From IMG/VR virus record IMGVR_UViG_3300031977_003400, positions 1 through 32,854 of that record: a stretch of DNA of 32,854 nt; one strand, written 5' to 3'. The notes beneath the pieces were generated by a model. It saw only the letters and a program-made list of their open reading frames with translations. It did not search any database and was not told the DNA's origin. This document shows positions 2,975 to 32,260 of the stretch, one piece after another (the stretch's first letter is position 1; each line of letters opens with the position of its first letter). The stretch is from a virus. The position numbers and the translations under genes are program-made.

Positions 2975-3154
2975 ATGTTAGACGAGAGAGAAGATAGGCG
3001 TTACAACTCAGGGCGAAGAAGATTCTTCGAAGGTTCAAAAGAGCAAAAGCATTTCTTAGTCCCGATAGAAATACTTGAGGAAGTGAAAGAGAACGCTTTG
3101 AAAATATGGGAGAAGAGAAAAAAGAAAATAAAAAAAAAGAAAGATGAAATTTAA
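2975..3154 (+). CDS. Hypothetical basic protein (59 aa)
   Basis: ATG at 2975, preceded only by a weak AAAGAG-like site; stop at 3152-3154, overlapping the next gene by 11 bases. The product begins MLDEREDRRYNSGRRRFF, has a short ordered middle (HFLVPIEILEEVKENALKIW) and ends in a run of lysines. The basic ends suggest nucleic-acid contact; no family was recognised. The 57 bases before it are very AT-rich and may contain a promoter, but no convincing -35/-10 pair was found. Confidence 0.5.
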   Translation: MLDEREDRRYNSGRRRFFEGSKEQKHFLVPIEILEEVKENALKIWEKRKKKIKKKKDEI

Positions 3155-3407
3155 GTTTTTTAAAGAAACATTAAATTCAAGTTCATTGTATTTTATAACA
3201 GTGCTTTCTATAACACTGAGTGTTTTCTTGAATCTTTACTTAGAAAAAACAAACATAGAAAAAATAGAAAACTATAAAACAAAAATTACAAAGCTTGAAG
3301 ATGATCTTTCAAAACACAAAGAAGCAAGCAAAATAAACCTAGAACTTTTAAGGCTCTACAAAGAAAACGTGGAATTTTATAGTAAAAAGAGGAGAAATTG
3401 TGAGTAA
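3144..3407 (+). CDS. Membrane-anchored coiled-coil protein (87 aa)
   Basis: One hydrophobic segment at about residues 13-33 (SSLYFITVLSITLSVFLNL) is followed by a heptad-rich helix (KIENYKTKITKLEDDLSKHK) to the end. With lysines before the segment, this is a type II-like anchor with the coiled coil outside the cytoplasm, or the reverse if orientation is not fixed by so few charges. This shape resembles i-spanins (Rz), but it lies in the early operon directly before SSB and no Rz1 partner is nested here, so a lysis role is doubtful. It overlaps both neighbours (11 and 8 bases). Confidence 0.6.
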   Translation: MKFKFFKETLNSSSLYFITVLSITLSVFLNLYLEKTNIEKIENYKTKITKLEDDLSKHKEASKINLELLRLYKENVEFYSKKRRNCE

Positions 3408-3792
3408 CTTAAACAGAGTAACTTTAATAGGAAGAGCAGGGAATACGCCAGAAAAAAGAGCGACAAGTACGGGTTCAGAGGTTTCAAACTTTAGTATTGC
3501 TACTACAGAAAAGTACAAAAATAAAGCTGGTGGGAAAGAAGAAAGCACAGAGTGGCATAATGCAGTAGCGTGGAATAAAATCTGCGACTATGTAACAAAG
3601 TATATCAACAAAGGAGATCTAGTATACATAGAAGGAGCTTTAAAGTATAGTAAATACACAAATAAAGAAGGCATTGAGAAAAGTAAAACTGAAATTCTTT
3701 GTAGTAGTGTTAAGTTGCTTTCCTCTTCTAAAAAAATAGAGAACGGCGAGGTTAGGCTACCAGAATTCTTAGAGGACAGCTTTCCTTTTTAA
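3400..3792 (+). CDS. ssb: Single-stranded DNA-binding protein
   Basis: A 130-residue bacterial-type SSB. It opens with MSNLNRVTLIGRAG and contains SNFSIATTEKYK, TEWHNAVAWNKI and NKGDLVYIEGAL, the standard OB-fold strand order over about residues 1-108. The linker is short, and the protein ends EDSFPF, the acidic-plus-PF tip that recruits SSB-binding partners. Start is GTG at 3400 after AGAGGAGAA (3388-3396). It protects ssDNA during phage replication and recombination, working with the replication protein at the left edge and the exonuclease at the right edge of the window. Confidence 0.95.
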   Translation: MSNLNRVTLIGRAGNTPEKRATSTGSEVSNFSIATTEKYKNKAGGKEESTEWHNAVAWNKICDYVTKYINKGDLVYIEGALKYSKYTNKEGIEKSKTEILCSSVKLLSSSKKIENGEVRLPEFLEDSFPF

Positions 3793-3803
3793 AATTTTAT
3801 ACT
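3773..3803 (+). promoter_or_regulatory. Possible promoter ahead of the packaging operon
   Basis: A good -10 (TATACT, 3798-3803) in an AT-rich gap lies 19 bases after AGGACA (3773-3778), a 4-of-6 match to TTGACA inside the end of ssb. It could start the late transcript at the ParB-methyltransferase gene. The -35 is weak and the spacing long, so this is tentative. Confidence 0.25.
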
Positions 3804-3821
3804 AACCGACATAAAAGAGCC

Positions 3822-5075
3822 TTGAAAATAGAAACGCTAAACGTTGGTGATATAGTACCAGCAAAATATAATCCTCGAGAAATTACAAAAGAAGCCTTGG
3901 AAGGGCTTAAAGCCTCAATTGAAACCTTTGGACAAGTAGACCCTCTGATAGTCAACAAAAGAGGGAACGTACTAGTAGGAGGACACCAAAGGCTCAAAGT
4001 ACTAAAAGAAATAGGAGTAAACACCGTTGAATGCGTTATTGTAGACTTAGACGAGACAAAAGAAAAAGCTCTGAATATCGCTTTGAATTCTCAGTATATA
4101 TCAGGGGAGTTTGAAATCAAAGAGCTTGAACCTATTCTCAAAGAACTAAAGTTTAATTTTGATCAGTATGAAGATATTAGGCTAGATGTTTTTGAGCTTG
4201 ATTATGACCTTGACTTTTTAGAGGAAGACGAACAAGAAGGCATTAATGGCGATGAAAATTCAATGCCAGAAGAGCTTGATAAAATCCTTATAAAAAAAGG
4301 AGATTTTATTGAACTTGGTGATCATATTTTACTCTGTGGGGATTCTACCTCTGAAAAAGACGTTGAAAGGGCTCTTAATGGCCATGCCCCTAATCTTATG
4401 GTGACTGACCCTCCTTACGGGGTAAATTATGAGGCCGACTGGAGAGCAGATCGAAAAAACACAAAAAAAACGGAAAGAGAAAAAAACAGCAAAATAGAAA
4501 ATGATGACAGGGCCGACTGGTTAGAAGCATACTCTCTTTTTAAAGGAGACATTGCTTATGTTTGGCATGCTATTTTGTATACTGACGTTGTTATGTCTAA
4601 CTTGAGAGACGCAGGCTTTGAGCTTTGTCAAAATATTATATGGAATAAAAACGTACATGCCCTATCCAGAAGCAATTACCACTGGAAGCACGAGCCTTGC
4701 TGGTACGCTGTAAAAAAGGGGGGAGAAAGAAACTGGAAAGGTGGCAGGACTCAGACTACTGTCTGGGACATAAAATCTATAGCCTTTGAAAAAGATAAAA
4801 CTGGCCATCCAACACAAAAACCACTAGAGATCTATGAAAGGCCTATAAAATTCCACACTGATAAAGGAGAACATATTTATGACCCTTTTGGTGGCAGTGG
4901 AACTTTGATAATAGCCTGTGAAAAACTTAAAAGAAAAGCGATAAGTTTGGAGCTTGCCCCAAAGTTTTGCCAGACGATTGTTCAAAGGTGGGTAGAATAC
5001 ACAAAAAAAGACCTGATAAAAATCAATGGAGAGGAAGTAGAGTGGAGTGAATTTACTCAAGGAGGTGTTTTTTAA
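3822..5075 (+). CDS. ParB-like domain fused to DNA N6-adenine/N4-cytosine methyltransferase
   Basis: A 417-residue two-domain protein. Residues 1-95 form a ParB/sulfiredoxin-type domain (NPREITKEALEGLKASI; the nucleotide-binding box GGHQR at 53-57). Residues 155-395 form a beta-class methyltransferase: DPPY at 196-199 (catalytic motif IV) comes before HPTQKP (329-334) and the AdoMet-binding DPFGGSG (354-360). No Met exists in frame until about residue 148, so the TTG at 3822 is the likely start, with a weak site. This fusion is a common phage gene placed just before the terminase, probably modifying phage DNA against host restriction or marking it for packaging. Its stop touches the terminase small subunit gene. 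Confidence 0.9.
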   Translation: MKIETLNVGDIVPAKYNPREITKEALEGLKASIETFGQVDPLIVNKRGNVLVGGHQRLKVLKEIGVNTVECVIVDLDETKEKALNIALNSQYISGEFEIKELEPILKELKFNFDQYEDIRLDVFELDYDLDFLEEDEQEGINGDENSMPEELDKILIKKGDFIELGDHILLCGDSTSEKDVERALNGHAPNLMVTDPPYGVNYEADWRADRKNTKKTEREKNSKIENDDRADWLEAYSLFKGDIAYVWHAILYTDVVMSNLRDAGFELCQNIIWNKNVHALSRSNYHWKHEPCWYAVKKGGERNWKGGRTQTTVWDIKSIAFEKDKTGHPTQKPLEIYERPIKFHTDKGEHIYDPFGGSGTLIIACEKLKRKAISLELAPKFCQTIVQRWVEYTKKDLIKINGEEVEWSEFTQGGVF

Positions 5076-8233: not shown

Positions 8234-9115
8234 ATGAGGAAGTTTAGAGAAACTAATTATAGTAAAGAGATTTTACTATTAAAAAAGATATTTGGAAAAG
8301 AGATAAAGGATTTAGATAAGCTAATTAAGTCTAATATTTTAGACAAACTTTCTTTTTTGCTGTATGACTCCAATTCAAACATCATTAGCAACTCTGTTAA
8401 AAAAGTCAAGGTCGGTTTTTTTGGCAGTTTGATTGATGGCGAGATAATAGACGACAGAAAAAAGAAAAAAGACCTTTTTAAAAAAATTAGAATTGTTTTA
8501 GAGGACTTAAACAAAAAAAACTTAAAAAACTTTTCTTATAATTTTTTCAACTCGACAAAAAGAAAGCCTCAAGAAAGCAAAAAAAAGACTAGTGATCTTG
8601 TGAAAGATATTGCAAAGGATAATGCAAAAAAGATTACTACGCTAGCGGTTGAGTATATAGATCAAGTTGACGCTATTATAGTAGATGGTTTTAGAGAAGG
8701 CAGGGAAAATAAAACTATCATCGAAGAAGTAAAAAAAAAGATTGTTGATGTTTCTGACTCTAAAAAAGCAAATGCAAAGCTTATAGCGACTGATCAAATT
8801 CAAAAGCTAAATGGCGAGCTTGATAAGATCAGGCAAAAAGCAAACGGATCGACACGTTATATCTGGAGAACTAGAGGCAACGAAGCCGTAAGAGATGACC
8901 ACAAAAGGCTTGAAGGGGCAATTTTTGAGTGGGGTAAGCCTCCTATAACTGTCACAAGTGGGAAAAGATCAGGAGAAAGGAACGAGCCTGCACAAGATAT
9001 AAATTGCAAGTGCTACGCAGAATTTATCGTCGAAGATATAACAGGCGAAAAAACAAAGAAAATTACAATAGCAGAAGAAAAAACAAAGAAGCTTAAAGAT
9101 AAAGGGTTTTTATGA
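8234..9115 (+). CDS. Mu gpF-like head morphogenesis protein
   Basis: A 293-residue minor head protein. The C-terminal third carries the Phage_Mu_F signature: ATDQIQKLNGELDK, then RYIWRTRGNEAVRDDHKRLEG and PAQDINCKCYAEF, where the paired Cys close the domain. The N-terminal two thirds are helical and very Lys-rich (about residues 70-110). In Mu and SPP1 the family (gpF/gp7) enters the capsid with the portal and assists assembly or ejection. The ATG at 8234 has no clear Shine-Dalgarno site, but the next upstream start is stopped. Its stop overlaps the following membrane-protein gene. Confidence 0.88.
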   Translation: MRKFRETNYSKEILLLKKIFGKEIKDLDKLIKSNILDKLSFLLYDSNSNIISNSVKKVKVGFFGSLIDGEIIDDRKKKKDLFKKIRIVLEDLNKKNLKNFSYNFFNSTKRKPQESKKKTSDLVKDIAKDNAKKITTLAVEYIDQVDAIIVDGFREGRENKTIIEEVKKKIVDVSDSKKANAKLIATDQIQKLNGELDKIRQKANGSTRYIWRTRGNEAVRDDHKRLEGAIFEWGKPPITVTSGKRSGERNEPAQDINCKCYAEFIVEDITGEKTKKITIAEEKTKKLKDKGFL

Positions 9116-10107
9116 ATTTTAACAAAAACACAAACAATTTACAAAAAGTTTTTGACAAGCCTTTTGCTTTATCTATTCCAAACGGAAATGAAATAACTAT
9201 AGATTTACACGGAGAATTTGAACACAACTCTGTAAAAATAGAAAACCTTACTAGAAAAGATATTCCTAACCCACAAGTCCGCAAAAAAGATAGTTCATAC
9301 AATTACGCTACGTATAAGGTTTTTTTTCCTAAAGACTACTACAACCCAACTGAAAAGGTAGAGCTGGTTTTTACGGGAGAAAAAAAAGAAGAAGAGAAAA
9401 AAAGCGTTCTTGAGCCATGTTTAGAGACGGGAAAGAACTTTACAAAAAAAGCCTTTAAAATCGTGGCTTATACTTTTATCACAAGCTTTATTTTTGCTTT
9501 AATTCTTTACCTAGACAACAAGCACAAAGATATAACAGGAGGGGTTTTTAATAAAATCTGGTCTTACGTAAGCGTAAATTCAATGATTGAGAGAGCTACA
9601 AAGATAGATAACGCAATTATCACAAATAATCACGAATTTTATGATTCAGAAAAAGCGAAAGAATCTGAAAAAGAGATAAAAGAAATCGTTGAAGACTTTA
9701 GTTATAAAAAGAAATTTTGGTATGTTGGAAATGGCAAGCTGATTATGCGAAGCTTGCACAGAGGAGCATATCCAACAGGGGAAGGAAAAGAAATCGACAT
9801 ACTAGAAAAGCTTACATACTCAGAAGCGGTTGACGTTTGTGAAAACTACGGTGGAAGAATCCCGAAAAAGTCAGAGCTTGAAAAGTATCTTTTTTTTAAA
9901 AAAGGGTTAAGTGCAGATCTTGTCTTGCCTATAAATTCGGAGCATAAAGAGCCAGAGTGGACAAGCGATAATGTGAGCTGGGACGACTACAAGATTTTCA
10001 TGAAGTCCTCAAAAAAAGTCCCTTTCCAGTCTGAGAAGGTGGGAGCTGATATTGTAGGAGATGATGGAGACACTTTCGTAGCTTTTAGGTGTATAATTGA
10101 TGTTTAA
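9112..10107 (+). CDS. One-pass membrane protein with C-type-lectin/DUF1566-like outer domain
   Basis: A 331-residue protein of three parts. Residues 15-88 are beta-rich (PFALSIPNGNEITIDLHG; YKVFFPKDYYNPTEKVELVF). A membrane segment follows at about 116-134, with lysines on its N-terminal side that predict N-in/C-out. The C-terminal part (234-330) shows LTYSEAVDVCENYGGRIPKK, then EWTSDNVSWDDY and FVAFRCIID. This is the 'A...C...GGRlPt..El...WtS...FRCv' pattern of DUF1566/FGE-sulfatase, C-type-lectin-like folds, with Cys243 and Cys327 as a possible disulfide. It is coupled (ATGA) to the Mu F gene and has AAAGGG upstream. An envelope-facing binding or exclusion role is inferred; it is not a usual member of this head gene order. 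Confidence 0.6.
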   Translation: MNFNKNTNNLQKVFDKPFALSIPNGNEITIDLHGEFEHNSVKIENLTRKDIPNPQVRKKDSSYNYATYKVFFPKDYYNPTEKVELVFTGEKKEEEKKSVLEPCLETGKNFTKKAFKIVAYTFITSFIFALILYLDNKHKDITGGVFNKIWSYVSVNSMIERATKIDNAIITNNHEFYDSEKAKESEKEIKEIVEDFSYKKKFWYVGNGKLIMRSLHRGAYPTGEGKEIDILEKLTYSEAVDVCENYGGRIPKKSELEKYLFFKKGLSADLVLPINSEHKEPEWTSDNVSWDDYKIFMKSSKKVPFQSEKVGADIVGDDGDTFVAFRCIIDV

Positions 10108-10109
10108 AA

Positions 10110-10631
10110 ATGCAAGATAAAAATTTCTTATACTCAATCTTCAGAGAGCCAAAAGACATACACAGAATTTTAGTTTCTGGGGTGTTAGCTCTTATACTTT
10201 CACACGTCTTTTACCTCTTTGAATCAGATTCAGAAAGTTTCTCTATCGTAAATGTCGATGATTATATACTTGTAGCTGTTTTTTGGTTTCAATTTGTTTT
10301 TTGCTTAGGATGGTGTCTTTTTAGTCAAAAAACGGGGCTTGTTATATACGGCAGGATAGGAGTTATTGCGTTATGGGCAATCTTAATACACAGGGTGTTT
10401 TATGGCGTAGAGTCGCTAGGCTCTTTTTTTGTAAACTTCGCTTTTTTACTCGGCTGGTCTGCTTGGCTTCCCTTTGCACTTTTTGGGCTTTCTATCGAAG
10501 GAGCTTTTATGAAGCTGAAACCTCTTTTCAAGAAGAGTGAGAAGGAAAAAGAAAAAACCGAAAGTAGTCAAAAAAATTTCAAGATTTTAAACTATAACAT
10601 CGAAAAAGTAGAGAAAAAAGATGCTGTTTGA
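10110..10631 (+). CDS. Four-helix membrane protein
   Basis: A 173-residue polytopic protein with hydrophobic segments at about 19-37 (ILVSGVLALILSHVFYLF), 52-72 (DYILVAVFWFQFVFCLGW), 77-97 (LVIYGRIGVIALWAILIH) and 104-125 (FFVNFAFLLGWSAWLPFA). A Lys/Glu-rich tail of about 40 residues follows and is probably cytoplasmic. It is the second gene of a three-gene membrane cassette between Mu F and the capsid protease. It could be a holin or superinfection-exclusion component, but it resembles no family I can name. No Shine-Dalgarno site precedes the ATG, which lies two bases after the upstream stop. Confidence 0.65.
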   Translation: MQDKNFLYSIFREPKDIHRILVSGVLALILSHVFYLFESDSESFSIVNVDDYILVAVFWFQFVFCLGWCLFSQKTGLVIYGRIGVIALWAILIHRVFYGVESLGSFFVNFAFLLGWSAWLPFALFGLSIEGAFMKLKPLFKKSEKEKEKTESSQKNFKILNYNIEKVEKKDAV

Positions 10632-10893
10632 AACGCTGACAGAGGCATACGTATCAGTAAGACAAGTAGAACACGAGATAAAGTGGTGGGCTATAATAAC
10701 GGCAATAAGTGTCTTTAAAATCTTAATGACCTATCAATCTAGCAACGCTTTTATCAATTCGACGATTTTTACAAGACGGCTTGCACAGCTTTTCGGTTAT
10801 GGTGCTATATCAATCCTTCTTTTAATCCAATTCTGGCCATATATTCAAGCCTTTTACTTTGTGATTTTTAAATTTATTGATTCAGTTTTATGA
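10621..10893 (+). CDS. Two-helix small membrane protein
   Basis: A 90-residue protein with membrane segments at about 21-39 (KWWAIITAISVFKILMTY) and 57-85 (LFGYGAISILLLIQFWPYIQ...VIFKF). The N-terminal 20 residues are charged. Two short hydrophobic helices in under 100 residues is a class II holin-like shape, but no endolysin is nearby, so lysis is only one option. It overlaps the four-helix protein by 11 bases and the DUF2213 gene by 4, so all three membrane genes and the head genes are read as one unit. The cassette probably works as a complex in the inner membrane (inference). Confidence 0.6.
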   Translation: MLFETLTEAYVSVRQVEHEIKWWAIITAISVFKILMTYQSSNAFINSTIFTRRLAQLFGYGAISILLLIQFWPYIQAFYFVIFKFIDSVL

Positions 10894-12002
10894 AAAACGT
10901 TGAAAGAATTGATTTTTTAGAATCAAAAATAAAAAATATTGAAAAATTTAAAGATGAAAACGGCTTTGCTTGTTTTGAAGCTTACCCTACAAAAGTAGGC
11001 GTTTATAAGTATGCGACAGAAGACGGAAGCTTTAGATCTGAGTTTAGAAGCGAAGAAGAAGTTTTTAGAGTAGATTCAATCGAATCTTTAGCTTTAAAGC
11101 CTTTCACAGTTGAGCACGAAGGAGGTTTTGTAACTCCAGAAAAATCGAGCTATCAAGTTAAAGGCTCAACAGGGGAAAAGGTAGAGGTAGAGGGCGAGCA
11201 TTTGAAATGTAAAATCGCAGTTTATGACAAAGAAGCTTTAGACGCTATAAGTAAAGACGGTGCAGTTGAGCTAAGTACTGGATACATTTGCGACACAGAA
11301 AAAAAAGAGGGTGTTTATAAAGGTGAAAAATACGACTATATACAAAAAAATATTCGGTATAACCACGTCACAGCTACCGTTAAAGGGCGAGGTGGTGAAA
11401 CTTGCAGAATTAGGCTTGATTCTGCTGGCAATTTAATCAAAAAAAAGGAGCAGATGAAAAAAAAGTATGACGGGTACGACAGCGAAGAATTGAAAATCGA
11501 CGCTATTGAGTACGAAGAAACAGAAGATACAGCAAAAATGCGTAAGGCATTAGATGCTTGCATGAATTATATAAAAAAAATAGGGAAAGACAAGAAAAGC
11601 GATTCTGAAATTGAGGCTAGAGTAGACAGCTTAAAGCTACAGTTAGACGCACTAAAAAACGAGAAAAAAACTTTAGAGGAAAAAACGCAAGGTTTAGTTG
11701 ACTCAAAAAAACTTGATTCTCTGCTAGCAGAAAGAGATGAGATAAAAGAAGTTGCTAAAAAAATTGGGTACGAGATAAAAAGCTCTGAGGATTTTGAGTC
11801 TACTAATAAAAAATCTATTACTGAAATTTTAGTGCAGGCAGGATACAAAAAAGAAAAACTGGATAGCAATAAAACTTACTTAGAGTTTGCGTGGGATAGT
11901 TTTTACAAAGACCACGACAATTTTGCAAAAAACTATAATTCCTTAAAAAACCTTTCTGAGTCTGAAAACAGTCAAGAATATTTTCAATCTGACCTTTTAT
12001 AA
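10890..12002 (+). CDS. DUF2213 capsid maturation protease fused to scaffold
   Basis: A 370-residue protein. The N-terminal 15-178 region has the DUF2213 pattern: CFEAYPTKVGVYKYATEDG, EEEVFRVDSIESLALKPFT, VELSTGYICDTE and YNHVTATVKGRGG...RIRLDS. By analogy with other prohead proteases, the Ser in LSTGY and His in YNHV are the candidate catalytic residues. From residue 189 on the protein is charged, with a heptad-rich coiled coil (SLKLQLDALKNEKKTLEEK), typical of a scaffold that fills the prohead and is then degraded. An in-frame internal ATG at 11454, exactly at the domain border, follows AAGGAG. The start overlaps the preceding membrane gene. Confidence 0.85.
   Translation: MKNVERIDFLESKIKNIEKFKDENGFACFEAYPTKVGVYKYATEDGSFRSEFRSEEEVFRVDSIESLALKPFTVEHEGGFVTPEKSSYQVKGSTGEKVEVEGEHLKCKIAVYDKEALDAISKDGAVELSTGYICDTEKKEGVYKGEKYDYIQKNIRYNHVTATVKGRGGETCRIRLDSAGNLIKKKEQMKKKYDGYDSEELKIDAIEYEETEDTAKMRKALDACMNYIKKIGKDKKSDSEIEARVDSLKLQLDALKNEKKTLEEKTQGLVDSKKLDSLLAERDEIKEVAKKIGYEIKSSEDFESTNKKSITEILVQAGYKKEKLDSNKTYLEFAWDSFYKDHDNFAKNYNSLKNLSESENSQEYFQSDLL
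11454..12002 (+). CDS. Possible separately translated scaffold (nested in-frame start)
   Basis: Inside the protease-scaffold gene an in-frame ATG (codon 189) follows AAAAAAGGAG, only 3 bases from the end of the GGAG core. It sits precisely where the protease domain ends (LDSAGNLIKKKEQ) and the scaffold begins (MKKKYDGYDSEE). The product would be 182 residues, highly charged and coiled-coil. Nested scaffold starts within a protease gene are known, for example lambda C/Nu3. The short spacing makes efficiency uncertain. Confidence 0.45.
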   Translation: MKKKYDGYDSEELKIDAIEYEETEDTAKMRKALDACMNYIKKIGKDKKSDSEIEARVDSLKLQLDALKNEKKTLEEKTQGLVDSKKLDSLLAERDEIKEVAKKIGYEIKSSEDFESTNKKSITEILVQAGYKKEKLDSNKTYLEFAWDSFYKDHDNFAKNYNSLKNLSESENSQEYFQSDLL

Positions 12003-25876: not shown

Positions 25877-26046
25877 AAGTTTTTTTAATTTCAACTATTT
25901 TTTTTGTTTTTTCTTGTGCTTCTTCTAGTGAGAGCAACAATGAAAGTTCTTCGGGAGGAGAAGGGAAAACAGGAGAAAGCGCAAAAAACAACAGTAAAAA
26001 CAAATTAATTATGGGGGAGTCAAGATGGGGCGAGACAAAATTTTAG
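25870..26046 (+). CDS. Small Sec lipoprotein (58 aa)
   Basis: An ATG at 25870 overlaps the end of the fibre-chaperone gene, and the frame runs to 26046, inside the next gene. The product starts MVKVFLISTIFFVFSCASSS, a typical lipoprotein signal with Cys16 as the modified residue; Phe at -2 is unusual. The mature part is about 40 residues of Ser, Gly, Asn and Lys, ending RWGETKF. A tiny outer-membrane lipoprotein could be an o-spanin (Rz1-like), although Rz1 proteins are usually Pro-rich and nested in Rz. No classic Rz is seen here. Confidence 0.55.
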   Translation: MVKVFLISTIFFVFSCASSSESNNESSSGGEGKTGESAKNNSKNKLIMGESRWGETKF

Positions 26047-26693
26047 CTTTTTTATTTTTTATTTTTTTATCAAGCAATGGAATTTCTCAGATAAAAATGC
26101 CGTATACTTTTAAAAATGGCGATATAGTAAATGCAAATGAAATCAACGCAAATTTTGAGCATATTAATGGGTTTAATGTTGAAGTAAGATCTAAAGGAAT
26201 AGGGATAGGGAAAACACATTCATCATATTTAGATGGCTTGGGAGTTGCTCAGATCATTGATGTTTTGCTTGATTTTGGTGGGCATAAAGTAAAAATAAAG
26301 AAAGATGGATCAATCGAAGGGTACAGGCAACTATACTTTTTCGAAAGCGACTGTTCAGGTACAGCGTATATAAGACTTGATTCTTGTGTTGGCTGTGATG
26401 CAACACATTTCTTTTTCGAGACGGATGGTGAGGTTTTTTATGCTAATGGGGGCGTATATTACACTAAAAAAGATGACGACTATTTTTATGGGAAGCCTGC
26501 GTATAAAAGCCATTTTGATATATACGGGCATATAAGTCAGCCACCATTAAGCTGTTCACCAACCCACCCTTTCGAAATTTTGATGAAAAAGGCTTACCCT
26601 AACAACCCAGCAATTACAGGAGTAACGGGGGGGGTAATCCCAAACCTAGAAGTTGTAGGCTTTACTCAAAAAAGTTTAATAAAAGTACCGTAG
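26025..26693 (+). CDS. Secreted protein with F-NG-NANE motif
   Basis: A 222-residue protein with a signal peptide (MGRDKILAFLFFIFLSSNGI, cut near residue 22). Directly after it comes YTFKNGDIVNANEINANFEH, the 'F.nG.va.A.evNaNF..i' motif often found at the start of secreted or tail-collar-like proteins of phages and bacteria. The rest is beta-rich, with Cys pairs (ESDCSGTAYIRLDSCVGCD). The start is supported by GGGGGAG at 26013-26019. A signal peptide in a fibre gene cluster is unusual, because tail proteins normally assemble in the cytoplasm. The protein probably acts at the host surface, but its role is unknown. Confidence 0.65.
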   Translation: MGRDKILAFLFFIFLSSNGISQIKMPYTFKNGDIVNANEINANFEHINGFNVEVRSKGIGIGKTHSSYLDGLGVAQIIDVLLDFGGHKVKIKKDGSIEGYRQLYFFESDCSGTAYIRLDSCVGCDATHFFFETDGEVFYANGGVYYTKKDDDYFYGKPAYKSHFDIYGHISQPPLSCSPTHPFEILMKKAYPNNPAITGVTGGVIPNLEVVGFTQKSLIKVP

Positions 26694-30400: not shown

Positions 30401-30980
30401 AGGGATACGTGAGTTTTTTGGGGGGATAACTGCAATTGACGCAGCAAACATCAAGATCAATGACAACACGCTCTCTATATACTTAGATAACACAACTTCT
30501 GTAACAGTAAAGCAAAGCGATGTAAGAAGGATTTTTAGGGGTGACTCCACAGGTCAGGCACAGTATCCAGTAAAAGAGCCAACTTCTGGTGGGGGCGGCA
30601 TTGACGTTGACTGGAAGCAACCAGTAATCGATGTCTCTGCGGCAATAAAACAAGCGTTGCTATCTCAAATACCGCAAGAGATGTGCTTAATAAAGGCGAC
30701 CGTAGTCAACAATAACGACATGCCTTTAGAAGCAAAAATTTTACTAGAAGAAAATGAGTTTTACGCTCAAGTAGTGAATAATTTTTACGATTCTTTTAGC
30801 AGTAAGTATACTGTTTCTGACAAAGTACTTGTCGATTCGTATAGCAAAGAGACAGGCGTTGTAGAGTGGGTTTTTCCTCAGGGAGCAACCGTGAAATTTT
30901 TTATTAAAAGGCTAGGTATTAATCATGTAGTTACAATTCCTGCACAAAAAGAGGCCAGCTTACATGATCTTTTGAGCTAA
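27486..30980 (+). CDS. Large tail fibre with N-terminal LamG/concanavalin-like domain
   Basis: A 1164-residue beta-rich fibre, the largest gene of the window. Residues about 12-250 form a LamG/concanavalin A-like domain (FIWCRQTEIQNPTAIYEQGG; RILFYINGVLQGIFEG; SLTQAQCREIFERTTFAEV), often carbohydrate-binding. Next come Ser/Thr-rich strand repeats (300-440), Ig-like segments (VNFTNLQAGSQVVVFQAG; VITNIEPNSRLQLYNVT), a helical switch (IYSAIQSIGEATGLQGEYQQ) and a Gly-rich hinge (PTSGGGGIDVDWKQPVIDVS). Residues 1067-1164 repeat the module ending the preceding gene. The stop overlaps the convergent outer-membrane gene by 4 bases. A role as host-binding side fibre is inferred. Confidence 0.75.
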   Translation: MAILTYLQSLGATHLFDFDNRGTLVADDLGNSVDPTNITGGNYTFELEPVCEGVTHSLDVIADTRNNTDGAIFDSRNDINSSNGAGNDTSIFDYNAGVRSVFIWCRQTEIQNPTAIYEQGGGSNNFAFMGGALITWQAADSGQPFLIVQSKSLAQANRSYFLTGIWEHYTQHLGAGNRILFYINGVLQGIFEGTGTDNFPGHGANITCGNSGDSLQSFAGTGLSSQTTDKNCNFLGMCNNVSLTQAQCREIFERTTFAEVTIPAGTVASQQTALDALSTNTYENVNCAIRILQATDATNYRLFVDNINFNADANLEDISVQFVGTGVLTLENTNGTVIQYTSSPPEVETTSTTYTGGGSTVVVNNTIRYKTNSIITNSSATKLVFDGTGTTYTVTGGTISEFENVSGNTVTVTLDSSATIPSTILETSGAIVVIAPPIEVNFTNLQAGSQVVVFQAGTQVEIFREDVSGTSSQWSEAYISDIDFDYTIQKAGFLPIRATGFTASNSILSFNVSQIEDRAYQASSGLIFGVDATIDTVLKTFSVSTATTVQNFYSFFIESFISESTLTNTTFPLSTNGPNSFSLNTGYEFDGQASIGFLSRDGLRYVDTSGNVTAIYSAIQSIGEATGLQGEYQQVEGVGVTDAKATGSFDQLIQVFGDATHGNFDYRDHLVLKYQANGFRESRSDVVATYGTLEDQLYIVAMGAQSIDGLVLGNPFVSGVTVTDHGAAPVSWDAGDGLKDYSITIEDSSSNSGDDILRWLNYNLSLDTVFQGKEPFNWPEMVLSTGSGFETSRGVVEGSTGATLKGVRVVRTGGTPHPDFLRFQADDGSYGIPIPQYTAVITNIEPNSRLQLYNVTTASEIFNGIVVTSTYSQDYLEGSSYSVGDTVRVRLTYASGLSAKINHQATVLASTGWSLIADQQDDQVYADFATDGSTITKFTADYVNDEVDLIVSTDFLASELYSWWVYNLSTEQGIREFFGGITAIDAANIKINDNTLSIYLDNTTSVTVKQSDVRRIFRGDSTGQAQYPVKEPTSGGGGIDVDWKQPVIDVSAAIKQALLSQIPQEMCLIKATVVNNNDMPLEAKILLEENEFYAQVVNNFYDSFSSKYTVSDKVLVDSYSKETGVVEWVFPQGATVKFFIKRLGINHVVTIPAQKEASLHDLLS
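30684..30977 (+). repeat. C-terminal fibre module, copy 2 (protein-level repeat)
   Basis: The last 98 codons of the large fibre (from CLIKATVV) match the end of the preceding gene. It follows a Gly-rich hinge and a short helix (SAAIKQALLSQIPQEM), so it behaves as an independent terminal domain. Confidence 0.65.
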
Positions 30981-31696
30981 AAGCCCATAACTCCAGTGAT
31001 GCCAACTGCTGTAAATCCCGTCGAATTTTCTTTTTCATGTCCACCATTTAGCATCATTCTAGCACCAAGCATCAAGCTTTCATCTCCAAAAATCTTGTAA
31101 AGAGCAACTTCGTAAGCTTCAGCAATCGTGTCATTTTTATCTTGATCATCTTTTGTTTCTGACGCTGTAACTCCTCCTCCAGCTTTAAATACCCACGATT
31201 CATAGGGGTATATTCTAAAAAGTAGCTTGGTAGTAAAGTGTAAGTGTCTAACTTGTCCGTCTCCTTTAAAGCCGTTTTCTTTAAATTTCAGATTTGTGTA
31301 GTCAGAGATAAGAGAGAAAAAGGGATTGAAAGCAAACTCGTAAGAAAGCGAGTAGTTTTGCGTTTCGTTGCTTTTTTGTGAGTTGTGATGAGGGTATGCT
31401 GAGAAATGGTAAGTGTAAGAAAAAAAGTGTTTTTTGTACTCCGTAAACCCTTGATTTTTACTTTTGTCGCCAGCTTCTAGCCTTCTTTTTTCTCCACCGT
31501 CAATTCTTTGTGGTACTTGATAGGGTATAGTTTGAGGTTGGCTTGCGTAAATATTTATATTGCTTGGAGTTTGTTCACGATTTTGGCTTAAAATCGTTTT
31601 TTCTCCGCTACAACTTGACCCATAGCCAGCGACGCACCACGAAAAAGAAATAGCAGGAGAAAATAAAAAAGCTATAAAAACTAATCCTCTAATCAT
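30977..31696 (-). CDS. Phage-encoded outer-membrane beta-barrel-like protein
   Basis: A 239-residue exported protein. I start at the ATG at 31696, preceded by AAGGGG; a GTG three bases upstream is too close to that site. The signal peptide is MIRGLVFIAFLFSPAISFSW. Next comes a Pro/Gln/Lys-rich linker with two Cys. From about residue 85 alternating strands appear (FFSYTYHFSAYPHH; NYSLSYEFAFNPFFSLISDY; HLHFTTKLLFRIYPYESWVF; AEAYEVALYKIFG). It ends in VGITGVMGF, with a C-terminal Phe as required for Bam insertion. It is the last gene of a minus-strand operon. It probably alters the host surface, for example receptor masking or superinfection exclusion (inference). Confidence 0.65.
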   Translation of the reverse strand: MIRGLVFIAFLFSPAISFSWCVAGYGSSCSGEKTILSQNREQTPSNINIYASQPQTIPYQVPQRIDGGEKRRLEAGDKSKNQGFTEYKKHFFSYTYHFSAYPHHNSQKSNETQNYSLSYEFAFNPFFSLISDYTNLKFKENGFKGDGQVRHLHFTTKLLFRIYPYESWVFKAGGGVTASETKDDQDKNDTIAEAYEVALYKIFGDESLMLGARMMLNGGHEKENSTGFTAVGITGVMGF

Positions 31697-31826
31697 CACA
31701 CCCCTTAGTTATTTTGTCAATTAATTTGCACTTTTTATAGTTGATGGCCTCTGACTTTTCTTGGCTTGCGTTTTTTGAGGAGCAAGCAAAAAGCACGATC
31801 ATAAAGCAGAAGATTAAAAATTTCAT
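31689..31826 (-). CDS. Small lipoprotein (45 aa)
   Basis: On the minus strand an ATG at 31826 overlaps the stop of the YdjM-like gene (ATGA), and the frame ends at 31689, 8 bases into the outer-membrane gene. The product starts MKFLIFCFMIVLFACSSKNA: a lipoprotein signal peptide with lipobox LFAC and modified Cys15. The mature part is about 30 polar residues with two further Cys (KKCKL; KGCDD). Tight overlaps on both sides make it a convincing small gene. It might anchor to the outer membrane and support the beta-barrel protein, or be an o-spanin; neither is shown. Confidence 0.65.
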   Translation of the reverse strand: MKFLIFCFMIVLFACSSKNASQEKSEAINYKKCKLIDKITKGCDD

Positions 31827-32260
31827 ATCCAGTTTTTTTTGAGTAGGGGGTTGAGAGAATCGCAAAAGTAGTGCGTTAAAAAGCCTACTGCTATAGCGAG
31901 AAAAAAGATACCGAAAGAGGGCAAAAAGTAGACACCGACAAGGCTTAGAGCAAGTGGTATGATATACTTGTGCGTATATCCTCTATGCTTTTGAGTTTTA
32001 ATAGCCATATAGGAGATGCCTATGATGGCACTTTCTATGTGCTTTCCAGCGAGCAAAAGAAAAAGAGCAGTAGCAACGCCTACCATTGCAGCATATCTTG
32101 AAGGAACTGATTGAGTGTCTAAGTCAGGGAAAAGGGAAAAGAGATAAGTAAGCACGCCACAAGCTAGGGATATGACGTTGTTGCTCGTAAGATAAAAAGT
32201 AGAGACGGAGACAAGGGATGCAGAAACAAGCCCGTAATTGCTATGATCTTTAAAATTCAT
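31823..32260 (-). CDS. YdjM-like (DUF457) membrane-bound metal-dependent hydrolase
   Basis: A 145-residue inner-membrane protein with conserved metal-ligand-type motifs: His6 near the N-terminus, FPDLDTQS (PDLD at 45-48), HRGYTH (92-97) and the late His130...Asp134 in THYFCDSLNP. Hydrophobic segments lie between them (about 29-44, 59-71, 98-113 and 115-130). E. coli YdjM is LexA-controlled, and relatives occur in many phages; the substrate is unknown. It leads the minus-strand operon and starts from the divergent control region at 32261-32346. No clear Shine-Dalgarno site is present. No LexA-type box was found here. Confidence 0.82.
   Translation of the reverse strand: MNFKDHSNYGLVSASLVSVSTFYLTSNNVISLACGVLTYLFSLFPDLDTQSVPSRYAAMVGVATALFLLLAGKHIESAIIGISYMAIKTQKHRGYTHKYIIPLALSLVGVYFLPSFGIFFLAIAVGFLTHYFCDSLNPLLKKNWI

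What the first reader, a model, noticed from the sequence alone, without database searches (positions are those of the whole stretch)
9112..10893. Lectin-fold membrane cassette inserted in the head operon
Three overlapping genes encode a one-pass protein with a C-type-lectin/DUF1566-like outer domain, a four-helix protein and a two-helix protein. They interrupt the otherwise standard portal, Mu F, DUF2213 order and are translationally coupled to both sides, so they would be made at the same time as capsid proteins. Together they look like an envelope complex with an exposed binding domain and two membrane partners. It may be a superinfection-exclusion, lysis-timing or envelope-sensing system. 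The combination is not one I recognise.
Basis: partly seen in the sequence, partly recalled or inferred. Interest (0 to 1): 0.72.

Follow-up and report, generated by a model that had tools for sequence, protein, structure and literature searches.

The report
Orphan membrane-gene trio in phage head operon
A tailed phage carries three genes, without detectable relatives, for cell-membrane proteins (one probably with a lectin-like outer domain) at a spot in its capsid operon where related phages carry nothing or unrelated extra genes; they are probably an accessory module acting on the host envelope, with function unproven.

Summary
The three genes are real. They lie at 9112-10107 (331 aa, one transmembrane helix), 10110-10631 (173 aa, four helices) and 10621-10893 (90 aa, about two helices), between Mu-F and the DUF2213 protease. 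Both outer junctions are ATGA overlaps; genes 1 and 2 do not overlap (2-nt gap). No relative of any of the three was found in IMG/VR, 50,697 phage records, Pfam, PHROGs or NCBIfam.

About seventeen relatives with the same head genes lack the trio. In five, Mu-F and DUF2213 lie 15-120 bp apart; the others carry unrelated cargo. The site is therefore a variable accessory ("moron") slot. The nearest relative (portal 100% identical) is a fragment that ends just before the slot.

The C-terminal domain of gene 1 is probably C-type-lectin-like: its only PDB sequence hits are intimin (E 0.006) and DEC-205 (E 0.06). That is borderline; AlphaFold had no homologues to work with and was uninformative. Gene 2 looks like a duplicated two-helix hairpin.

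Most likely this is a late-expressed accessory inner-membrane module displaying a lectin-like domain in the periplasm, plausibly for superinfection exclusion. Lysis control or independent cargo genes remain open. Association of the three proteins is untested.

The parts
9112..10107 (+). gene 1: 331 aa, N-terminal ~100 aa predicted cytoplasmic (beta-rich in a low-confidence model), one TM (residues 114-132), helical stalk ~136-200, C-terminal probable C-type-lectin-like domain (~199-331)
   Evidence: ORF; TM; codon-usage score 0.25 in frame; PDB hits only intimin E 0.006/0.012 and DEC-205 E 0.06 with the C-terminal 130 aa; no relatives; AF2 pLDDT 41
9814..9891 (+). best-supported lectin-like stretch of gene 1, residues 235-260 or so (LTYSEAVDVCENYGGRIPKKSELEK)
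   Evidence: aligned to intimin D3 (KRVTYNDAVNTCKNFGGKLPSSQNELEN) and a DEC-205 C-type lectin domain; register also matched to the DUF1566/Lcl_C profile at a weak score
10110..10631 (+). gene 2: 173 aa, four TMs, predicted N-in/C-in with Lys-rich C-terminal tail; two halves resemble each other (duplicated two-helix hairpin, motif VFYxxES...FxLGW)
   Evidence: ORF; TMs; internal repeat score 48, reached by 2/2000 full shuffles and 9/2000 TM-class shuffles; no relatives
10621..10893 (+). gene 3: 90 aa, about two TMs; overlaps gene 2 by 11 nt and DUF2213 by ATGA
   Evidence: ORF; TM; in-frame codon score 0.12, lowest of the three; no relatives
8234..9115 (+). left flank: Mu-F-like minor head protein; ATGA overlap with gene 1
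   Evidence: Pfam Phage_Mu_F E 5e-13; PHROG head morphogenesis E 7e-40
10890..12002 (+). right flank: DUF2213 head maturation protease/scaffold; ATGA overlap with gene 3
   Evidence: Pfam DUF2213 E 4e-35; PHROG head maturation protease E 2e-59

Best explanation
An accessory (moron-like) envelope cassette has been inserted into a variable slot between the Mu-F and DUF2213 head genes of a myovirus, without breaking the operon. It is translated with the late genes. Gene 1 is anchored in the inner membrane (N-in/C-out) and presents a probable C-type-lectin-like domain in the periplasm. Genes 2 and 3 are inner-membrane proteins that probably assemble with it or act beside it. Most likely the module alters the envelope of the infected cell late in infection, for example by binding an envelope or phage component and blocking DNA entry by other virions (superinfection exclusion). 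Shown: the genes, their position, coupling and membrane segments, the variability of the slot, and the absence of detectable relatives. Inferred: insertion rather than loss elsewhere, topology, lectin fold (about 0.7), association of the three, late expression, and the exclusion function.
For: The slot is variable. In five relatives the flanking genes lie 15-120 bp apart (pA2SJ1 38, D93 120, contig L011 74, E. coli 611R5 15, Hafnia yong1 15); others hold unrelated soluble genes, HNH-type genes or opposite-strand genes. The trio has no detectable relatives, as is usual for accessory genes. The genes have phage-like codon usage. There are 4-nt overlaps at both outer junctions, and no excess of promoter or terminator sites. 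Hydrophobic segments are clear in genes 1 and 2. C-type-lectin-like proteins are the only PDB hits for the gene 1 C-terminus, and Pfam's only weak match is the intimin C-type lectin domain. The same phage carries other envelope-type genes: YdjM (Pfam E 3e-10) and two proteins with apparent signal peptides (my reading).
Against: No functional evidence of any kind. Lectin evidence is borderline: a reversed-sequence control also gave a family-coherent cluster of hits at E 0.12 and above, the DUF1566 profile score was beaten by 5 of about 400 unrelated ORF ends, and structure models were unusable. No second copy of the trio is known to show that the genes travel together, so they could be three separate acquisitions. 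The exclusion proteins I know of are mostly expressed early or from prophages, not with capsid genes (own knowledge).
Confidence: 0.4

Rival explanations
1. Three independent small accessory membrane genes that accumulated in the same slot and do not form one functional module.
For: The slot in relatives collects unrelated genes. No homologous trio is known to show co-inheritance. Gene 3 has weaker codon-usage adaptation than genes 1 and 2.
Against: All three are membrane proteins and genes 2 and 3 overlap. Among the annotated slot genes of the relatives examined only one on the coding strand (pOW20-A, 63 aa) clearly showed a hydrophobic segment.
Confidence: 0.25
2. A lysis or lysis-timing module: gene 3 (and/or gene 2) acts as holin or antiholin and gene 1 as a periplasmic sensor or regulator.
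For: No endolysin, holin or spanin was recognised in the proteins scanned from the 32.8 kb record. Small multi-TM proteins expressed late fit holins in general. Relatives have lysis genes close upstream of the packaging/portal genes, which are not recognised here.
Against: No match to any holin family. Gene 3 lacks the charged C-terminal tail typical of class II holins (my reading). No lytic enzyme lies nearby. The record is a linear, probably incomplete one, so the lysis genes may simply be missing. A one-TM coiled-coil gene at 3144-3407 is a better spanin candidate.
Confidence: 0.18
3. Virion or ejection proteins: gene 1 is packaged with Mu-F and forms part of a DNA-entry channel in the next host.
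For: Position directly after Mu-F in the head operon, and translational coupling.
Against: Gene 2 is a strongly hydrophobic four-TM protein, unlikely to be stored in a capsid. Relatives assemble heads without any of these genes.
Confidence: 0.1
4. (Independent of the functional readings.) The gene 1 outer domain is not a lectin fold; the similarity to intimin and DEC-205 is chance and the protein is an unrelated membrane protein.
For: Borderline E-values (0.006-0.06); a reversed control gives coherent families at 0.12; weak DUF1566 profile score; Foldseek without any significant hit.
Against: All four PDB hits, from two unrelated proteins, are C-type-lectin-like and in the same register. The top E-value is 20 times better than the control. 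The low-confidence secondary structure (strands, two helices, C-terminal strands) has the right order.
Confidence: 0.28

Closest known systems
Intimin/invasin D3 and C-type-lectin-like domains (including DUF1566/Lcl_C)
   Same: Shared T-Y/W-x-x-A-x-x-x-C...G-G/R-x-P...E-L stretch; extracytoplasmic location likely
   Different: No curated Pfam cut-off reached; only ~28 residues aligned; DUF1566 profile match not distinguishable from the best unrelated ORFs
Phage superinfection-exclusion membrane proteins (T4 Imm/Sp from own knowledge; lipoproteins of the Ltp type, PMC3952083 abstract)
   Same: Small accessory membrane proteins encoded by a phage, not needed for the virion in relatives
   Different: No sequence relation found; three genes; located in the head operon rather than an early or lysogeny module; function untested
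Phage moron insertions in structural operons
   Same: Extra genes in a gap that is empty or differently filled in related phages
   Different: Translationally coupled at both ends, without recognisable promoter and terminator of their own
Phage holins/antiholins
   Same: Small multi-TM proteins in a late operon
   Different: No family match, no adjacent endolysin, no typical C-terminal charge pattern in gene 3

Membership tests
C-type-lectin-like domain (intimin D3 / DUF1566) | significant profile match | tested here: not met
   Intimin_C E 0.15, 13 bits against cut-off 27; no Lcl_C hit; hhalign probability 3%
C-type-lectin-like domain (intimin D3 / DUF1566) | sequence similarity specific to C-type-lectin proteins | tested here: inconclusive
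   the only PDB hits are intimin and DEC-205, E 0.006-0.06; reversed control best 0.12
C-type-lectin-like domain (intimin D3 / DUF1566) | three-dimensional fold | tested here: inconclusive
   single-sequence AF2 pLDDT 37, Foldseek best E 0.8
Superinfection-exclusion protein | blocks DNA entry of a second phage | not testable with these tools
   needs an experiment
Superinfection-exclusion protein | homology to a known exclusion or defence family | tested here: not met
   no Pfam/PHROG/NCBIfam match; one PADLOC match (mREase_IV, E 0.0003) not reproduced when pieces of the region were searched apart
Holin / lysis cassette | holin family match and adjacent endolysin | tested here: not met
   none
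Moron-type accessory insertion | absent from relatives with the same flanking genes | tested here: met
   none of about 17 relatives carries it
Moron-type accessory insertion | own promoter and terminator | tested here: inconclusive
   no excess of sigma-70 promoter or terminator matches over shuffles; the host's promoter type is unknown

The most novel reading that the evidence does not exclude
A three-protein phage-encoded envelope receptor-like complex, with a membrane-anchored C-type-lectin-like sensor plus a duplicated-hairpin membrane protein and a small partner, is made with capsid proteins and either shuts the cell to competing phages or senses the envelope to time lysis.
Probability: 0.15. 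Interest if true: 0.65.

Novelty: new variant of a known kind. Interest (0 to 1): 0.35.

Why it matters
If the module works as inferred, it would be a late-expressed, lectin-bearing envelope system built into a head operon, which I do not know from described phages. It would also mark the Mu-F/DUF2213 gap as a place to look for accessory genes in this broad group of phages. If it is only separate orphan cargo genes, it is ordinary phage variability.

Tried and rejected
Homology searches of all three genes in IMG/VR, phages, and of gene 1 in plasmids, 399 bacterial genomes (95) and the records of ten relatives (87): nothing. The IMG/VR scans use exact 8-residue patterns, so distant relatives could be missed. 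The portal alignment was too divergent for a pattern scan; the portal found no relative among bacterial genomes and the capsid protein none in IMG/VR. The nearest relative L002 (portal 100%, Mu-F 93%) ends just before the slot, so it cannot answer whether the trio is shared. Single-sequence AF2 of gene 1 and of its C-terminal part: unusable. Foldseek on the latter: many C-type lectins among insignificant hits (best E 0.8, TM-scores about 0.2), not counted as evidence. The PADLOC hit to a type IV restriction enzyme vanished when pieces of the region were searched separately and is probably chance (shuffles gave nothing). A diversity-generating retroelement was not pursued: no reverse transcriptase was noticed among the genes. 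A sub-threshold Pfam match of gene 2 to herpesvirus glycoprotein B (E 0.017) was rejected as chance. Literature searches for a phage lectin-type exclusion system gave no precedent (few searches, open-licence papers only).

Full report
What the window is. The 32,854-base window is a whole linear IMG/VR virus record, 36.8% G+C. It carries a contractile-tailed phage late region: large terminase, portal, Mu-F, DUF2213 protease, capsid, sheath, baseplate. It has no tRNA genes, and no integrase or lysis enzyme was recognised among the proteins scanned. It is probably incomplete at its ends, since an open frame runs off the right end. The host is unknown; ribosome-binding sites before several genes and an apparent outer-membrane barrel gene suggest a Gram-negative.

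Check of the observation. The three ORFs are at the stated coordinates. Gene 1 starts inside the Mu-F stop (ATGA, 9112-9115). Gene 2 starts 2 nt after the gene 1 stop. Gene 3 overlaps gene 2 by 11 nt, and DUF2213 starts inside the gene 3 stop (ATGA, 10890-10893). Their lengths against shuffled DNA (99th percentile 117 codons) and their in-frame codon scores (0.25, 0.21, 0.12 bits per codon; other forward frames negative) show genes 1 and 2 to be real; gene 3 is probable. Hydropathy gives 1, 4 and 1-2 TM segments. By the positive-inside rule I read gene 1 as N-in/C-out and gene 2 as N-in/C-in with a Lys-rich tail (inference).

Neighbourhood in relatives. Portal, Mu-F and DUF2213 profiles were run over relatives from phages, IMG/VR and bacterial genomes, and the content of the gap was read. 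The gap is 38 bp in Vibrio pA2SJ1, 120 bp in Vibrio D93, 74 bp in an IMG/VR contig (L011), and 15 bp in E. coli 611R5 and Hafnia yong1. It is filled with unrelated genes elsewhere: small ORFs in Psychrobacter pOW20-A, a soluble 108-aa protein in Vibrio 1.123.O, opposite-strand genes in PhiPLPE and Klebsiella SCNJ1-Y, a 174-aa soluble protein in WC36-2, and HNH-type genes in two Sphingomonadales prophage-like loci (my reading of the sequence). None has a trio relative (for ten whole records). The trio is therefore accessory to head assembly. The closest relative, L002 (portal identical at protein level, Mu-F 93%), is a 4,966-bp fragment that ends within Mu-F, so whether it has the trio is open.

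Identity of the proteins. None of the three matches Pfam, PHROGs or NCBIfam beyond noise, and none has a tblastn match in 50,697 phages even at E 1-5. For gene 1, the C-terminal 130 residues give exactly four PDB hits, all C-type-lectin-like: intimin (0.006, 0.012) and DEC-205 (0.06, twice), all over the LTYSEAVDVCENYGGRIPKKSELEK stretch. The reversed sequence gave a chromodomain cluster from E 0.12, so coherent families do arise by chance near 0.1; the lectin hit is 20 times better but not conclusive. A DUF1566 (Lcl_C) profile built from 27 sequences aligns in the same register with score 18.3 against 11.1 +/- 2.5 for shuffles, about 1 of 100 shuffles higher, but 5 of about 400 other ORF ends score higher, three of them close relatives of one another. 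AF2 without homologues failed (pLDDT 41 and 37) and Foldseek gave nothing significant. I put the lectin fold at about 0.7.

Gene 2 has an internal repeat: residues 19-68 align with 82-116 (RIxV...VFYxxES...F...FxFxLGW). The score of 48 was reached by 2 of 2000 full shuffles and 9 of 2000 shuffles that keep the TM/loop composition. I read it as a duplicated two-helix hairpin.

How it probably works. Co-translation with head genes and no excess of promoter or terminator matches imply late expression (inference). A type II anchored protein with a periplasmic lectin-like domain, plus two hydrophobic inner-membrane proteins, fits a module acting on the infected cell's envelope. Of the possible purposes I rank superinfection exclusion or envelope modification first (0.4), independent cargo second (0.25), lysis control third (0.18) and ejection proteins last (0.1). 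Separate from these is the chance that the lectin reading itself is wrong (0.28). No step of the mechanism is shown experimentally.

Novelty. The kind, accessory membrane genes in a variable slot of a phage structural operon, is known. This composition, with orphan sequences and a probable lectin-like outer domain, is new as far as the searches here show. Interest 0.35: a real but unproven orphan module with one copy known.

Noticed in passing
window 30977-31699 (-): 240-aa protein with an N-terminal signal-like segment and outer-membrane beta-barrel look, on the opposite strand at the end of the late region; no phage relative by tblastn. A Lom/Ail-like conversion gene is possible.
   Followed up: partly
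window 31823-32260 (-): YdjM-like inner membrane protein (Pfam PF04307, E 3e-10), next to the barrel gene.
   Followed up: partly
window 26025-26693 (+): 222-aa protein with an apparent signal peptide followed by a PYTFKNGDIVNANEINANFEHIN motif; no phage relative and no family.
   Followed up: partly
window 3144-3407 (+): 87-aa protein with one N-terminal TM and an apparent coiled coil, the architecture of an i-spanin, just upstream of the SSB-like gene; lysis genes were otherwise not recognised in the record.
   Followed up: no
L002 1-1000 versus window 3400-5075: The near-identical relative has a different gene (oxygenase-like by eye) upstream of the small terminase where the window has a ParB-N/DNA-methylase gene: a second variable position.
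   Followed up: no
L021 5497-6576: A Rickettsiaceae MAG contig with a related terminase carries a patatin-like phospholipase gene directly after the large terminase, where a portal would be expected (read by eye).
   Followed up: no
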